From: Atopobium massiliense
Lineage (GTDB): Bacteria; Actinomycetota; Coriobacteriia; Coriobacteriales; Atopobiaceae
Assembly (NCBI GenBank): GCA_900343135.1
Contig: OPYK01000006.1
Location: 1 to 64,000 of the forward strand
Reading direction: 5' to 3'
DNA: 64,000 bases
The notes under the pieces are model-generated. The model had not been told where the DNA came from. It saw only the letters and a program-made list of their open reading frames with translations, and made no database searches. How positions within the stretch are numbered: position 1 is the first letter of the stretch; each line of letters opens with the position of its first letter. Below, piece after piece: positions 1 to 52,044 of this stretch. A program made the translations under genes and the position numbers.

Positions 1-34
1 ACGCCGCTCCTAAGAAATAGGTTTATGTATTCAA

Positions 35-110
35 AGCAGGCGCACGCAGTTTTGATTTTGGAGTGCGCTAAAGCGAAACTCCAAATCAAAACAGCTCTTT
101 AGCGCCTGCT
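35..110 (+). repeat. Palindromic unit A1, intact, un-nested copy
   Basis: This is a two-tier palindrome. The outer arms are AGCAGGCGC (35-43) and GCGCCTGCT (102-110). The inner arms are 49-64 and 78-92, which pair along about 15 bp with one bulged T. The apex is GCGCTAAAGCG. The same unit, in reverse orientation and split open by other units, forms the outer shell of the nest at 50296-50647. The core has the asymmetric form AGTGCGC..GCGAAACT, shared with the units at 18533 and 49766, which allows the copies to be oriented. No protein is encoded here. Confidence 0.8.
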
Positions 111-149
111 TTCGTGCATCTAGCTTGATTTTCTTGCCACAACAAAAGC

Positions 150-18474: not shown

Positions 18475-18532
18475 TTTAGGCATTAACAACATTTCGGTGC
18501 AACACTGCTAAGTAAACCTGTTTTATGTAAAC

Positions 18533-18614
18533 ACAAACGGGCAGACGCTTTGTTGTCTGCGAAGTGCGCTTTCGCGAAACTTCGCCACAACAAAGCTCCC
18601 AGCTGCCCGTTTGT
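18533..18614 (+). repeat. Palindromic unit B1, intact, un-nested copy
   Basis: The outer arms are ACAAACGGGCAG (18533-18544) and CTGCCCGTTTGT (18603-18614). The inner arms are GCTTTGTTGT..GCGAAGT (from 18547) and ACTTCGCCACAACAAAGC (18579-18596). The apex is GCGCTTTCGCG. The unit and its flanks (AGTAAACCTGTT.. left, GCATCTCACTTAC right) recur at 49766-49847. The core AGTGCGC..GCGAAACT matches the other units. Confidence 0.8.
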
Positions 18615-18648
18615 GCATCTCACTTACTTTCTGCATCACCAATACAAG

Positions 18649-19047
18649 AAGACTGAAGAGCGATTACTGTTGCCGCAGTGCTAACGCACCGCGGCAACGT
18701 TATTATGGGGAACATGCGGCGTGCGTTTCGCTCGTTACAAAACTTTTTCACTCATATTAGAAAATTACCCCACTTTGACACGCGTTTCGGTGTCGTTCAA
18801 GCGCGCATCATGCCGCTGAAAAAACGTGCGTTTTCCAAACGCCCAGGTAGGAGCGTTGGGGCTTTTTTGACCTGTGTCCTACAGTGCAAAGTTTGGCAAT
18901 TTTTGGGTTCAAAACGCGTGTCAAAGTGGGGTAATTTTCTAATATCGATCAACTTTTTTTGTAAGCAGCGATCCGGCTTCAAATATCCTCTAAAACGCGC
19001 TGCCTTGCGGGGTTTGCAAGGCAGCGCACTCATTGCTCTTCAGGCTT
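18649..19047. repeat. Central module B: inward-facing hairpins around a 34-bp inverted repeat
   Basis: The outer inverted repeat is AAGACTGAAGAGC (18649-18661) and GCTCTTCAGGCTT (19035-19047). Inside are a left hairpin (18669-18698) and a right hairpin (18997-19008 with 19016-19027, 12-bp perfect stem). Centrally there are two perfectly complementary 34-nt arms at 18754-18787 and 18912-18945 with a 124-nt spacer. The same layout with the same arm sequence and the same spacer length occurs at 49882-50260. An open frame runs through the plus strand but has no ribosome-binding site, and both strands are open; I treat it as non-coding. Confidence 0.85.
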
Positions 19048-19083
19048 CCCGCTTGAGCGGAGAGAAGGTCAAGCTAGATGCAT

Positions 19084-19307
19084 AAACGCGGATAGCGGAG
19101 AGCTTTGTTGCATGCGAAGTTTCGCGTTTATAGACCTGCGTATTTGATTGAAAAACGTGTGTTGCTGGGAGCTGCTCTATTTTGAAGTTTCGCGAAAGCG
19201 CACTTCAAAATAGAGCTGCGCCAACACACGTTACACGTAAGGCGATTTACGTATGCTATGTACCTGCATACGCGCACTTCGCCCACAACAAAACACCTAT
19301 CCGCGTT
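19084..19307 (-). repeat. Nested palindromic units B2 (CGCGGATAG unit containing CGTGTGTTG unit)
   Basis: The outer arms are AACGCGGATAG (19084-19094) and CTATCCGCGTT (19297-19307), with inner arms 19102-19120 and 19276-19292. The core of this unit, AGTTTCGCG|GCGCACT, is split by a second complete unit. Its outer arms are ACGTGTGTTG (19155-19164) and CAACACACGT (19222-19231), its inner arms GCTCTATTTTGAAGT (19173-19187) and ACTTCAAAATAGAGC (19202-19216), and its own core TTCGCGAAAGCGC is intact. At 50296-50647 the same two units are nested in the opposite order. Confidence 0.85.
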
Positions 19308-19443
19308 ACAGTGGCGAGAGATGTGCACCCGCCGCGCACATACTGATGATGCGAAGCGCGTGTAAACTCTATTTGTTCACACATTATCATTGTCTTTTTC
19401 TTACAATATAACTACCACTACCGTGCCTGTATTCGGAGGTTTT

Positions 19444-47341: not shown

Positions 47342-47768
47342 GGTATTCGCTCCTTAACGGGGTGAAAGTATCAATAATGTGGTTTCATTTTATCCAATAA
47401 ATTGAGGATTATTTTATGGTTCAATTCAGCTTTATTTGGAGTTAGTGGTTTTCGTGTGCGCTGCTATTCATATGTTATTTATGCAGCTAAATACCATTGT
47501 TTAAATGTAGTTACTTGCCTAAGTTCAATAATAGCTTTTTCAGTATTCGTTCATTACTGTGCATAATATATGAGTATTAATACATGTTGTTTGTGCGTTT
47601 TAACGAAACCGAACTTTGCATAACTTGAATTATGGAATCTTTTCAGATATATGGATTATTTCTAAATTTGCTGCTTTTTTTTTTCTTCTTTGTAATTGTC
47701 CTACACTTTGTTGTACGAGATGCCCACTGGTTGAGCTTGACATTCGTAGGTACATATGGAGGTATAGG
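47342..47768. promoter_or_regulatory. AT-rich divergent spacer with T10 tract
   Basis: The 427-base spacer between two divergent exported-protein genes is markedly AT-rich. It includes a run of ten T (47675-47684) in a pyrimidine-rich stretch, 85 bases before the surface protein start. An in-frame extension from 47616 reads through this tract but has no ribosome-binding site. Homopolymer runs here could vary in length and affect expression. No other structure stands out. Confidence 0.45.
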
Positions 47769-49748
47769 ATGACAGCTTGCTATATGCATAGTAAACAACA
47801 CAACAGCAAAGCAAAGCACAATTTTGGCAGCTGCTCTTTAGCGTGTATAAAACCCGCTCAATTCGCACCGTATAACCGTGCGTGGTATGGAAAATCACTC
47901 TGCGTCGTTGGAATATCCTTGGCGTGTGCATGTTCGGCTGTATGCGTTGGATTGAACAACGCAGCTTTTGCAGATGAGCCGGTAGGGCAATCTTCGACCA
48001 ATACAATCCCTGCTCAGCAGCAAACGCCAAAGCGCACGTTAACTAAAAAAGATGTTGCAGCAATGGCTGGTTGCGACGCTACAATTGATGGTGACAAGCT
48101 TGTTATTGCTCCTCAAAACAAAGCAGCTGATGGTGTTATAAGTAAAGATCAAAAAGAGGATAATTTTAATACATTGCGAGACGCTATAAAGAGTGCTGCC
48201 GCTCGAGGTAAAACACTGGAATTTAGAGGCAACATTTACGGCTACGGCAATATCAGTGAATTATTTAAGGAAAGCAAAATTTCTAGTCTTGGCAATATTA
48301 ATCGCTTTGATGTATCGAACGTTACAGATATGAGCGAGCTTTTTAGCGGGTGCTCATCTCTAAAAGGCTCCCTTGAACCTCTTGCGTCGTGGGATACAAG
48401 TAATGTTACAAATATGAAAGAAATGTTTTCATCCTGCACAAGGATTTACGGTTCGTTAACACCGCTTAACAGCTGGAACACATCGAAAGTAACAAATATG
48501 GGCGGGATGTTTTTTGGTTGCAATTCACTTTCGGGTGTAAACGACTTAAGCAACTGGGACATTAGCAATGTTGTAGATAATCCTAAAGGAGATACGCCAG
48601 ATAAACGCTACGGTGAGCGTTTTGGCTTAAAGTACCTCTTTGCGGCTTACTATGACGCAACTGATAAGTGGCATGGTGTTGGAAATGGGAATTTCGTGCT
48701 GAACTTTAGTAATAAGAAATTCCCAGATAAGGTTACAACTGCTAAAATGTTCAAATATTTGGGCTGTACCCTTGTTGCTACTAATTGGCAAAATTATAAG
48801 CTGAATCATTCTTTTACTTCTCATGATATATTCGATTTCGCGAAACATGGGTGGATCTTTGCTGATAACCATGGAGCAGACTTTACTTTTGTAACAGACG
48901 TCACTACAGGACTTGCCGACTCCGATTTTGTTAAAGAGGGAAGCTATAAAATAGTGAACTATAACGTGACTGTTACATATAAAACTCCTGATGGTAAAAC
49001 ATGTACTAAAACGGTGGCTTTGAAGTATGCACGCGCACTTAAAAAGCCAGGTACAAATAACCAAGAGGAAAAGCCCCCTACATTCGATTTGGCCGAGCAA
49101 GAGGCATATCGAACAGCAGCTCAAGCGATTGTTCAGTACGATATAGATGGCCTTAAAAAGCAGCATCCTAATTGGATTATTACTAATAAATTTCACGTGG
49201 GCGCTCAGCTACCAGCAACGCTGCCTACCACCATTGATGAAGTGAAGGATATTACGATTGATTTAGGACAAATCACTGTAAATCAAGAGCATAAACCCAA
49301 TTTGGAACCTGAACTAACAGTTCTGTACCGCCTGTACAACCCGTACACACATGAGCACTTCTTTACCGCAGAAACGGTAGAAAACGACAACTTGGTACGT
49401 CTTGGCTGGAAGAGTGAAGGTGGCGTAGGATACGTTTACAAACATGGCGAGAAAGGCGGCGTATACCGCTTGTACAACCCCACCACAGGCGAACATCACT
49501 ACACTATGAATGAAGACGAAGTTGCTACATGCGTTAAAGCAGGCTGGAAAAGCGAAGGCGTAAAGTGGTTTAGCGCCCAAGACAAAGAGGTAACGCTAAA
49601 TAAGCTTTACAGTATGTACAACCCGTATGAGAAGAAGTTTTACCATCACTACACGGCAGACGCTAAAGAAATCGAGCAGATGGTAAAGGCTGGCTGGCGC
49701 AAAGAGGAAGTAAAGTGGTGCACGCTGCCAGCCAGTGCTGTTAAGTAA
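47769..49748 (+). CDS. Exported surface protein with DUF285/BspA-type repeats and three C-terminal WK-type repeats
   Basis: The 659-residue protein has a late signal peptide (hydrophobic core about 43-60, cleavage near AAFA-DEP at 68). DUF285 repeats follow (about 165-270; FDVSNVTDMSELFSGCSSL, WDTSNVTNMKEMFSSC, WNTSKVTNMGGMFFGC), as in BspA-like and Mycoplasma/Lactobacillus surface proteins. After a middle region of about 240 residues come three repeats of about 45 residues (about 515-650): LYRLYNPYTHEHFFTA, VYRLYNPTTGEHHYTM and LYSMYNPYEKKFYHHYTA, each ending in a GWK/GWR motif (DUF5648-like). The repeats may bind cell-wall glycan; there is no LPXTG. GGAGG lies 6 nt before the ATG at 47769. 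Codons are more AT-rich than in neighbouring genes, suggesting transfer. Confidence 0.75.
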   Translation: MTACYMHSKQHNSKAKHNFGSCSLACIKPAQFAPYNRAWYGKSLCVVGISLACACSAVCVGLNNAAFADEPVGQSSTNTIPAQQQTPKRTLTKKDVAAMAGCDATIDGDKLVIAPQNKAADGVISKDQKEDNFNTLRDAIKSAAARGKTLEFRGNIYGYGNISELFKESKISSLGNINRFDVSNVTDMSELFSGCSSLKGSLEPLASWDTSNVTNMKEMFSSCTRIYGSLTPLNSWNTSKVTNMGGMFFGCNSLSGVNDLSNWDISNVVDNPKGDTPDKRYGERFGLKYLFAAYYDATDKWHGVGNGNFVLNFSNKKFPDKVTTAKMFKYLGCTLVATNWQNYKLNHSFTSHDIFDFAKHGWIFADNHGADFTFVTDVTTGLADSDFVKEGSYKIVNYNVTVTYKTPDGKTCTKTVALKYARALKKPGTNNQEEKPPTFDLAEQEAYRTAAQAIVQYDIDGLKKQHPNWIITNKFHVGAQLPATLPTTIDEVKDITIDLGQITVNQEHKPNLEPELTVLYRLYNPYTHEHFFTAETVENDNLVRLGWKSEGGVGYVYKHGEKGGVYRLYNPTTGEHHYTMNEDEVATCVKAGWKSEGVKWFSAQDKEVTLNKLYSMYNPYEKKFYHHYTADAKEIEQMVKAGWRKEEVKWCTLPASAVK

Positions 49749-49765
49749 GCCTGTTATATATAAGC

Positions 49766-49847
49766 ACAAACGGGCTGACACTATATTGTGGGCGAAGTGC
49801 GCTTGCGCGAAACTTCGCCACAACAAAGCTCCCAGCTGCCCGTTTGT
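49766..49847 (+). repeat. Palindromic unit C1, intact, un-nested copy
   Basis: Same unit as at 18533: outer arms ACAAACGGGC (49766-49775) and GCCCGTTTGT (49838-49847), inner arms TTGTGGGCGAAGT (49786-49798) and ACTTCGCCACAA (49812-49823), apex GCGCTTGCGCG. The conserved left flank AAGTAAGCCTGTT reaches into the stop codon of the surface protein gene (TAA at 49746-49748). It would be transcribed as the 3' end of that mRNA. Confidence 0.8.
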
Positions 49848-49881
49848 GTATCTCACTTACGTTCCTTAACGCCAATACAAA

Positions 49882-50260
49882 AAGTCAGAAGAGCAATGAG
49901 TGCGCCGTTTTGCACAACCCGCAAAACGGCGCGTTTTTGTGGAGCGGGCGTTACAAAAGTCTTTCACTCATATTAGAAAATTACCCCACTTTGACACGCG
50001 TTTCGGCGTCGCACAAGCGCGCTGGAGCTCGCCGCAAAAAAGTGCGTTTTGCATTTACGCAGGTAGGAGCGTTGGAGCATTTTTGCTCAGCTGGCACATG
50101 TGCCTCAAAGGACAATTTTTGGGTTCAAAACGCGTGTCAAAGTGGGGTAATTTTCTAATATCGCTCAACTTTTTTTGTAAGCGCTGAGAAGGTTTCAAAA
50201 ATCCATTAAAACGCACCGCCTGGCAGCAGCCAGGCGGTGCACCAATTGCTCTTCAGTCTT
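49882..50260. repeat. Central module C: inward-facing hairpins around a 34-bp inverted repeat
   Basis: The outer inverted repeat is AAGTCAGAAGAGC (49882-49894) and GCTCTTCAGTCTT (50248-50260). The left hairpin is GCGCCGTTTTGC (49902-49913) / GCAAAACGGCGC (49921-49932) followed by TTTTT. The right hairpin is GCACCGCCTGGC (50213-50224) / GCCAGGCGGTGC (50229-50240), preceded by AAAA. Two perfect 34-nt inverted arms lie at 49970-50003 and 50128-50161 with a 124-nt spacer, identical in arm sequence and spacer length to module B. The spacer is conserved near its ends (CGG.GTCG, TTTTTGGGTTCA) but diverged in the middle. Non-coding. Confidence 0.85.
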
Positions 50261-50295: not shown

Positions 50296-50647
50296 AAAGC
50301 AGGCGTCTGGGAGCAGTTTTGATTTGGAGTTTCGCGTTTAAAGACGTTCGTATTTGAATGAAAAACGTGTGTTGCTGGGAGCAGCTCTATTTTGAAGTTT
50401 CGCGTTGAAAAGACGCACGGTTGCAATGCATAAACGCGGATAGCGGAGAGCTTTGTTCGCAAGTGCACTTCGCCTACAACAAAGCGTCTATCCGCGTTAC
50501 AGCTGCGAGAGTTATTTGCTCACGTTACACCTGCATACGCGCACTTCAAAATAGAGCTGCGTCAACACACGTTACACGAAAGTTGATTTGCGTTTGCTTT
50601 GCACGTACATACACGCACTCCAAATCAAAACTGTGCGTGCCTGCTTT
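50296..50647 (-). repeat. Triple-nested palindromic units C2
   Basis: Shell 1 has outer arms AAAGCAGGC (50296-50304) / GCCTGCTTT (50639-50647) and perfect 16-bp inner arms at 50315-50330 / 50617-50632; it is the unit found intact at 35-110, in reverse orientation. Its core is opened by shell 2, with outer arms ACGTGTGTTG (50365-50374) / CAACACACGT (50563-50572) and perfect 18-bp inner arms at 50381-50398 / 50543-50560. The core of shell 2 is opened by unit 3, with arms AACGCGGATAG (50433-50443) / CTATCCGCGTT (50488-50498). Each junction lies at the same point, AGTTTCGCG | ... | GCGCACT, and each insert ends in a CATAC-type sequence. Confidence 0.88.
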
Positions 50648-50691: not shown

Positions 50692-52044
50692 TTAGCGGGC
50701 AAGTGAACCCATCGGATCCCACGGTTCAAGTACGGTGGCTTCTTCGTGTTCAAAGGTGTCGCGCTGCTCTTGGGTGAGGTATTTTTTATCAACAACTACC
50801 TGGTACACATACTCATCAAACCAGGCGTCGCTCAAAGTATCAAAGCCGTCGCGGCCGTGATCTTTACCCCAGCTGTTTTCAACTTTCCACATAACAGGCT
50901 TTTTGTTGGCGTCAAAACGTACGCCCTCGAGCACCATAGCATGTGTCATCAGCGATTCGCCGTAATCAAGACGCGTAGCTTTATCCATGCTTTGTTCAAT
51001 TTCAAATCCAAACAGCGCATCTACATCAAGTGCTGCCAAGTCCATCATACCTTCATCGCGCAAGTACGATTGCGCAACGTCGCAGCCAAACCACACGGGC
51101 AAATTATCCGAAAGCTGAGCGATTGCAACGCGTTTAAGCTCGGCAGGTTCAAGATTGAGGTAGCGCACGCCGTGGTCTTCCCACACGTTGCCCAAACGGC
51201 TTACGGTATAGGTGTGACCAAAAGGTTTATCAGCTGTTGGTGCAGAGATAAGCGAAATATAATCGTCGAGGTTCATACCTACGGCTTCATCAAAGAATTG
51301 CTGCGGGGTATAGGTGCCAGCAAGTACCAATTTGTCGTTTTTGTCGCGAAGACGCACGTCAAACGATGCAGGTGGTTCACCAAGTGAAATAACAAGCAGG
51401 TGGTACACGTTGTCCATCATGCCTTTTTTCATGTTCAAAAGCTCGTCAATTGAACTTCCCTTAGCATGTGCTTCGCGCAGGCGAGCAGCGCACTTACGCA
51501 GGTAGCGGGTAAGGTAGCGATCCATATCGGACGTGTTGCATGAGTTGGCAGTTTCGGGCATGCTTGCCTTGGGGCACACGCCATATTTTTTAACTAAACT
51601 TTTGAACATGTCCCACTGACCGCCGTCGCCTACGGGCGCATCAAGTAAAAAGCTTACCAGTCTGCCATGAACATCTTCATCGAGCGTGTCGAGAATGTTC
51701 TCCAAAAACCAGTTGCTTTTTTCCATTTTGTCCCAAAATAGGGGGTATACCTGCGAAAGTTCAAATGTTTTAAGATTGAACTTTTTGATGATGCGGTAGC
51801 GCATCGTGTTGAGTGATGCAAACATCCAGCAGCGACCCGAGCGTTGCTGATTGCAGCGATCGCCTTGCGTAACCTCAATGTCAAAATCGAGCGTGTTCTG
51901 CGCAACGCCCTCGGGGACGCGCGCCGCTTTGCGGATGCCGCATGAACTTGCTGCATTTTTTGCAACGGTAAGGGCTCTATCAGCATCAAAGCGCTTTTGC
52001 GCTGCTGTTACATCACTTGTGGTAATACTACGCATGGTGTCCAT
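50692..52044 (-). CDS. pepC: Aminopeptidase C (bleomycin hydrolase family C1B)
   Basis: The 450-residue cytoplasmic cysteine peptidase releases N-terminal amino acids from peptides. The catalytic triad is visible: Cys72 in NQQRSGRCWMFASLN (with the oxyanion Gln), His368 in MTHAMVLEGV and Asn390 in WKVENSWGKDHG. Length fits the hexameric C1B enzymes (about 440-455). The penultimate C-terminal region ends MGSLAR rather than the typical short autoprocessed tail. CGGAG precedes the ATG at 52044. It is a lone gene between palindrome cluster C and thrS (divergent). Confidence 0.95.
   Translation of the reverse strand: MDTMRSITTSDVTAAQKRFDADRALTVAKNAASSCGIRKAARVPEGVAQNTLDFDIEVTQGDRCNQQRSGRCWMFASLNTMRYRIIKKFNLKTFELSQVYPLFWDKMEKSNWFLENILDTLDEDVHGRLVSFLLDAPVGDGGQWDMFKSLVKKYGVCPKASMPETANSCNTSDMDRYLTRYLRKCAARLREAHAKGSSIDELLNMKKGMMDNVYHLLVISLGEPPASFDVRLRDKNDKLVLAGTYTPQQFFDEAVGMNLDDYISLISAPTADKPFGHTYTVSRLGNVWEDHGVRYLNLEPAELKRVAIAQLSDNLPVWFGCDVAQSYLRDEGMMDLAALDVDALFGFEIEQSMDKATRLDYGESLMTHAMVLEGVRFDANKKPVMWKVENSWGKDHGRDGFDTLSDAWFDEYVYQVVVDKKYLTQEQRDTFEHEEATVLEPWDPMGSLAR

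What the first reader, a model, noticed from the sequence alone, without database searches (positions are those of the whole stretch)
50296..50647. Three palindromic elements nested inside one another at the same core site
Read from both ends, this 352-bp stretch is a set of Russian dolls. A unit with 16-bp perfect arms (50315-50330/50617-50632) is opened at its core by a second unit with 18-bp perfect arms (50381-50398/50543-50560), which is itself opened at its core by a third (50433-50443/50488-50498). Every break is at the same place, AGTTTCGCG | GCGCACT. This is what repeated insertion of a small palindromic element into the loop of an earlier copy would produce. The outer unit exists uninterrupted at 35-110, a natural empty-site control. 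A self-targeting non-autonomous element family is the simplest reading.
Basis: partly seen in the sequence, partly recalled or inferred. Interest (0 to 1): 0.85.

Follow-up and report, generated by a model that had tools for sequence, protein, structure and literature searches.

The report
Nested copies of a 3'-end RNA hairpin
A bacterium related to Atopobium and Olsenella carries palindromes inserted into the loops of other palindromes; the palindrome turns out to be an uncatalogued RNA hairpin with a conserved cap that sits just after the stop codons of genes in this bacterial class, so the nesting is real but the basic unit looks like a working mRNA-end structure rather than only a selfish DNA element.

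Summary
In detail: 50296-50647 is three hairpins, each placed in the cap of the next. The genome has about 20 more copies, with other nesting orders (3[2] at window 19078-19311; 2 inside a type-1/3 chimera; half-lost 1[3]) and empty caps. Insertion of a hairpin-bearing module of about 140-150 bp into a cap loop is well supported; how it moves is unknown.

'Self-targeting non-autonomous element' misses what the unit is. The same cap (mRNA sense U-G-CGC-NNN-GCG-RA-A on a compensated stem) occurs in all 31 Thermophilibacter genomes and in 9 of 125 Coriobacteriia genera sampled. It lies 34-59 nt past stop codons, 40:1 in one polarity, at the same genes (rplX, groEL, pnp, leuS) in different species, with compensatory changes even in the cap stem. 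No Rfam family matches and it is not RAYT/REP.

Best reading: a capped 3'-UTR hairpin RNA, in relatives probably built on intrinsic terminators, amplified here with DUF5648 surface-protein genes and secondarily inserted into itself.

The parts
50296..50647 (+). Nested stack 1[2[3]] (strand = strand carrying AGTTTCGC..GCGCACT; the mRNA-sense strand is the opposite one). Outer unit is type 1 and lies 45 nt behind the stop of the minus-strand gene 50692-52044
50336..50614 (+). Module 2 (279 bp, itself holding module 3) inserted in the cap of the type 1 unit
50364..50573 (+). Type 2 unit: arms 50364-50374/50563-50573 and 50381-50398/50543-50560
50404..50540 (+). Module 3 (137 bp) inserted in the cap of the type 2 unit
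50430..50501 (+). Type 3 unit, innermost, with part of its cap deleted
19078..19311 (+). Second nest in the window: type 3 unit with type 2 in its cap (3[2])
19126..19273 (+). Module 2 (148 bp) inserted in the type 3 cap; its own cap is empty (CGCGAAAGCG)
30..115 (-). Type 1 unit, uninterrupted (empty state)
18531..18616 (-). Type 4 unit, uninterrupted; no intact gene end beside it
49764..49849 (-). Type 4 unit, uninterrupted, 16 nt behind the stop of the DUF5648 gene 47616-49748
47616..49748 (+). DUF5648/DUF285 surface-protein gene, typical neighbour of the units
50692..52044 (-). Gene whose 3' end carries the nested stack (by eye a C1 peptidase of the PepC type; not tested against a library)

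Best explanation
The unit is a structured RNA hairpin placed just after stop codons in some Coriobacteriia. Its conserved cap reads in the mRNA as U-G-CGC-(3-4 nt)-GCG-RA-A (a 1x2 internal loop under a 3-bp capped stem) on long arms that change freely but stay paired. In Thermophilibacter the arms appear to be those of the gene's intrinsic terminator, so the element most likely acts at mRNA 3' ends (termination and/or protection of the upstream mRNA), with the cap recognised by a protein or RNase. In the window's genome it sits mainly behind paralogous DUF5648 surface-protein genes and is followed by a separate terminator. In a few intergenic places a segment of about 140-150 bp holding one complete hairpin plus its own flanks was inserted, always in the host's polarity, into the cap loop of another copy, giving Russian dolls that still fold as one extended hairpin. 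Shown here: sequence, family, structure, covariation, polarity, orthologous sites, empty and filled caps. Inferred: what the cap does, and the insertion mechanism (mobile module, or capture of a fragment at a cut hairpin tip).
For: Own-genome family and nests. Structure: own units 96.4% paired cells, 20 of 29 pairs with changes on both sides, covariation 0.499 vs 0.172 shuffled; relatives 94.3%, 23 of 28 pairs, 0.562 vs 0.168. Same cap in all 31 Thermophilibacter genomes, 3-44 copies, and in 9 of 125 genera of the class; exact cap pattern 16 vs 0 in the own genome and up to 20 vs about 1 in Thermophilibacter against its reversed control. 41 of 55 hairpins of relatives lie 34-59 nt past a same-strand stop; polarity 40:1; own genome 10-45 nt past the stop in most units. 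Same genes in different species: rplX, groEL, pnp, leuS, an ABC transporter. Cap stem co-varies CGC/GCG, CAC/GTG, CTC/GAG. Some species have a plain terminator with T-run at the same gene end (groEL in G166 and G152). Inserted modules share ends GTT.A.AAGACG..CCTGCATACGC in different hosts; two module-2 inserts are 148 bp each and 92% identical.
Against: The relatives' hairpins examined for position were partly chosen by best score. T content behind the hairpins is only modestly raised (2.2 vs 1.6 per 10 nt), so terminator function is weakly shown, and in the own genome another terminator follows. Distribution is patchy and some orthologous sites lack the cap, which a mobile cap would also give. 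13 of 55 hairpins have no close gene end in my simple gene calls. No expression data.
Confidence: 0.72

Rival explanations
1. Self-targeting non-autonomous mobile element (MITE-like): the palindrome is a selfish DNA unit whose preferred target is the cap of its own kind, moved by an unseen transposase.
For: Nests in different orders, empty and filled caps, shared module ends with weak inverted similarity GCGTTTATAGACGTGC / GCGTATGCAGGTGC; patchy distribution.
Against: Strict position and polarity behind stop codons; maintenance at orthologous genes with compensatory changes; no clear target duplication; no Y1/RAYT gene in the own genome; no autonomous relative in the own genome; no plasmid or phage match; no nests seen in relatives.
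Confidence: 0.15
2. The nests arose without insertion, by unequal recombination and conversion between the many copies, which share cap and flanks.
For: Chimeric type 1/3 host at C8:174142, half-lost hairpins at C8:123633 and C8:121241, shared left outer flank of 19078 and 174142 with different inner arms and right flanks; tandem half-hairpins in Thermophilibacter.
Against: A nest needs two joins (host cap to module end on each side) with almost no shared sequence; the module carries constant ends of its own in different hosts.
Confidence: 0.1
3. REP element spread by a REP-associated Y1 transposase (RAYT).
For: Hairpins behind genes with an asymmetric stem resemble REPs.
Against: No Y1_Tnp in the own genome or in G003, both with the hairpins; where present, the Y1 genes are flanked by unrelated palindromes such as GGGACAGTCCC.
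Confidence: 0.02
4. Paired DNA uptake signal sequences placed in terminators, as in Neisseria and Pasteurellaceae.
For: Short conserved word in inverted pairs at gene ends.
Against: The words are not enriched outside hairpins: AAGTGCGC 3 observed, 2.1 expected; AGTGCGC 8 observed, 10.9 expected in 73 kb.
Confidence: 0.01

Closest known systems
Intrinsic (Rho-independent) terminators and 3'-UTR stem-loops that stabilise mRNA
   Same: Directly after stop codons, long GC-rich stem; plain T-run terminators stand at the same gene end in some species
   Different: A conserved asymmetric cap with a covarying stem is not part of the definition of terminators; in the own genome a second terminator follows the hairpin
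REP / BIME elements and RAYT transposases
   Same: Intergenic palindromes with an asymmetric stem at gene ends; palindromes as insertion targets
   Different: No RAYT association, arms not repeated between sites in relatives, no GTAG or CGTC tag seen
IS elements that insert into REP palindromes (IS1397, IS621, ISKpn1, ISPpu9; PMC1525189) and REPs lying inside other palindromes (PMC3733652)
   Same: A palindrome serves as insertion target
   Different: Here the inserted piece belongs to the same family as its target and carries no gene
MITEs
   Same: Small, gene-free, present in several copies, with filled and empty sites
   Different: No clear target duplication, no autonomous partner, vertically kept at orthologous genes in relatives
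Integron attC sites
   Same: Imperfect palindrome behind each gene in one orientation (recalled from general knowledge)
   Different: Conserved part is the apex, not the base boxes; no integrase association was examined

Membership tests
Conserved structured RNA at mRNA 3' ends | Compensatory base changes supporting the stem | tested here: met
Conserved structured RNA at mRNA 3' ends | Fixed position and polarity relative to the gene | tested here: met
Conserved structured RNA at mRNA 3' ends | Present in the transcript | not testable with these tools
   no expression data
Rfam families | Match at a curated score to one of 4227 families | tested here: not met
Intrinsic terminator | Stem followed by a T-run | tested here: inconclusive
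   2.2 T per 10 nt behind the stem against 1.6 expected; clear T-runs in plain versions at the same site
REP/RAYT | RAYT gene in the genome, flanked by the element | tested here: not met
MITE | Terminal inverted repeats with target-site duplication | tested here: inconclusive
   constant module ends, weak inverted similarity, no unambiguous duplication
MITE | Empty and filled target sites | tested here: met
   between paralogous sites of one genome; strains of the species were not available
MITE | Matching autonomous element | tested here: not met
   in a draft genome (95% complete), so weak
DNA uptake sequence | Single words enriched genome-wide | tested here: not met
   (73 kb of T. gallinarum)
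Integron attC | Integrase gene and core boxes at the base of the palindrome | not tested
   no integrase search was made

The most novel reading that the evidence does not exclude
The cap is a recognition module for a dedicated RNA-binding factor or ribonuclease of Coriobacteriia that governs mRNA 3' ends, and the same cap, as a DNA hairpin, is the entry site at which hairpin modules insert into each other, so that an mRNA-end structure is also a self-propagating sequence.
Probability: 0.2. Interest if true: 0.8.

Novelty: new variant of a known kind. Interest (0 to 1): 0.58.

Why it matters
It turns a curious nested palindrome into a testable, uncatalogued RNA element found in every Thermophilibacter genome examined, at central genes such as rplX, groEL, pnp and leuS. 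A constant cap on free but compensated arms implies a specific partner, which could be isolated. The nests show that 3'-end hairpins can be insertion targets for their own kind, a possible route by which such structures grow.

Tried and rejected
RAYT/REP origin: Y1 genes absent or flanked by other palindromes. Uptake signals: no enrichment outside hairpins. Rfam: nothing relevant; weak microRNA matches are chance for any long hairpin. Plasmid and phage relatives: no match. Four exact cap matches in IMG/VR are within what I would expect by chance from the size of the collection (rough estimate) and were not followed. Nests in relatives: none among sampled loci, only tandem half-hairpins (that scan also lists intact caps because of a filter flaw). 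Longest-ORF gene calls in the GC-rich relatives were unreliable and were replaced by codon-position scoring. Direct DNA search of 60 relatives found nothing; only structure models reached them. Literature searches found no paper on this element, in an open-access library only.

Full report
What is there. The 352 bp at 50296-50647 contain three nested hairpins as described: outer arms 50314-50330/50617-50633 (17 bp) with a further 9-bp arm at the very ends, middle arms 50381-50398/50543-50560 (18 bp), inner arms 50433-50443/50488-50498 (11 bp). The stretch folds far better than shuffles in either chemistry (z -8.9 and -9.3). Two corrections: the innermost hairpin is not broken but has lost part of its own cap, and the right-hand break of the outer unit is degenerate (ACACGCACT).

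The family in this genome. The genome (G000, 1.55 Mb in 16 contigs; an Atopobiaceae by its threonyl-tRNA synthetase) contains about 20 full units with at least five kinds of arms but one architecture: outer arm of about 11 bp, internal loop (CTGGGAG or similar against CGTC), inner arm of about 17 bp, a 2x1 internal loop, and the CGC-loop-GCG cap. 20 of 29 pairs show changes on both sides. Most units begin 10-45 nt behind a stop codon, in the same polarity. Most of those genes end in a DUF5648 domain, and the kind of arm tends to go with the gene's C-terminal tail, which suggests that gene end and hairpin were duplicated together. A separate terminator with a T-run follows.

The nests. These arrangements were read: 1[2[3]] at window 50296; the same with right halves lost at C8:123633; 3[2] at window 19078-19311; 2 inside a type 1/3 chimera at C8:174142; and 3 inside 1 with the left part lost at C8:121241. 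Type 1 caps are empty at C12:30, C11:181389 and C8:174834; the type 3 cap at C8:70059; type 2 caps in the inner units of 19078 and 174142. The inserted modules begin GTTTATAGACG or GTTGAAAAGACG and most end CCTGCATACGC or nearly so, whichever hairpin they sit in, and keep the host's polarity. Two module-2 inserts are 148 bp each and 92% identical. This is what insertion into the cap loop predicts. However, the left outer flanks of 19078 and 174142 are 81% alike while the right ones are not, so recombination between copies has also been at work and the number of independent events is uncertain; at least two kinds are needed (2 into a host, 3 into 2).

The family elsewhere. DNA search found nothing in 60 relatives, but the covariance model did, and the hairpins found share the cap, not the arms. 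The cap pattern is enriched in the own genome (16 vs 0 for the reversed control) and in Thermophilibacter (up to 20 vs about 1), and hardly elsewhere in the family. The genus name rests on a contig of the same length as one of T. gallinarum DSM 107455. A model from 24 relatives (94.3% of cells paired, covariation 0.562 vs 0.168 shuffled) matches all 31 genomes of that genus, 3-44 times each, and 58 of 298 genomes, 9 of 125 genera, of the class. In T. gallinarum the hairpins follow rplX, pnp, groEL, leuS, ABC transporters and others (gene identities by eye from protein sequence). Of 55 hairpins, 41 have a same-strand stop codon 34-59 nt before the cap, and polarity is 40 to 1.

Orthologous sites. 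The 3' regions of rplX and groEL across the genus show the capped hairpin in most species with arms that differ but stay paired; the cap stem itself changes in a compensated way (CGC/GCG, CAC/GTG, CTC/GAG). A few species have a plain terminator instead (groEL in G166 and G152), and G149 has the rplX arms of G077 with the cap missing, between short TCTC repeats, so a deletion is at least as likely as an empty site. An extra outer stem encloses many of these hairpins, so multi-level hairpins are common here even without nesting.

Interpretation. Position, polarity, conservation at orthologous genes and covariation argue for a functional RNA at mRNA 3' ends. That the arms in Thermophilibacter are terminator stems is suggested by plain terminators at the same places and by T-rich tails in some, but the T enrichment is modest. 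The cap's constancy on changing arms implies a partner; this is inference. The nests look like a secondary phenomenon, seen only in the window's genome. Whether a mobile module or capture at a cut hairpin tip made them cannot be settled with one genome of the species.

Novelty. No Rfam family matches, and RAYT association was tested and not met. IS elements that target REP palindromes (PMC1525189) and REPs lying inside other palindromes (PMC3733652) are known, so palindromes as insertion targets are not new. A 3'-end RNA hairpin inserted into the cap of its own kind, in different orders, appears to be a new variant, with the limit that only open-access literature was searched.

Noticed in passing
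window 18754-18945 and 49970-50161; also L032 1002-1193, L041 733-924, L240 2616-2807, L241 2570-2761: A separate element of about 192 bp with 34-bp perfect inverted ends ATATTAGAAAATTACCCCACTTTGACACGCGTTT, about 8 copies in the genome, several between convergent gene ends next to the hairpins; L036 near 370 may be a deleted or empty version.
   Followed up: partly
genome-wide; window 47616-49748: About 20 DUF5648 matches in a 1.55-Mb genome, several at contig ends, so the assembly breaks in this gene family and its hairpins.
   Followed up: partly
L033 near 740 (C8:70046): The flank of module 3 resembles the last codons and stop of an acyltransferase-like gene (GCAAAGCAAGCAAATGA), so the module may have begun as a gene end with its hairpin.
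   Followed up: partly
L225, L246, L247, L249 between rplX and rplE: Thermophilibacter has an unusually long rplX-rplE spacer (about 300-770 nt) holding the capped hairpin and, in several species, a conserved stretch that looks like a promoter and leader before rplE.
   Followed up: no
L212-L224: Y1 (RAYT-like) genes of Olsenella and Thermophilibacter relatives are flanked by GGGACAGTCCC-type palindromes, an independent REP-like system.
   Followed up: partly
L262, L264, L265, L267 (Olsenella): Capped hairpins enclosed in a longer palindrome with GAGTTC..GAACTC ends and without a clear gene end nearby, possibly in coding sequence.
   Followed up: no
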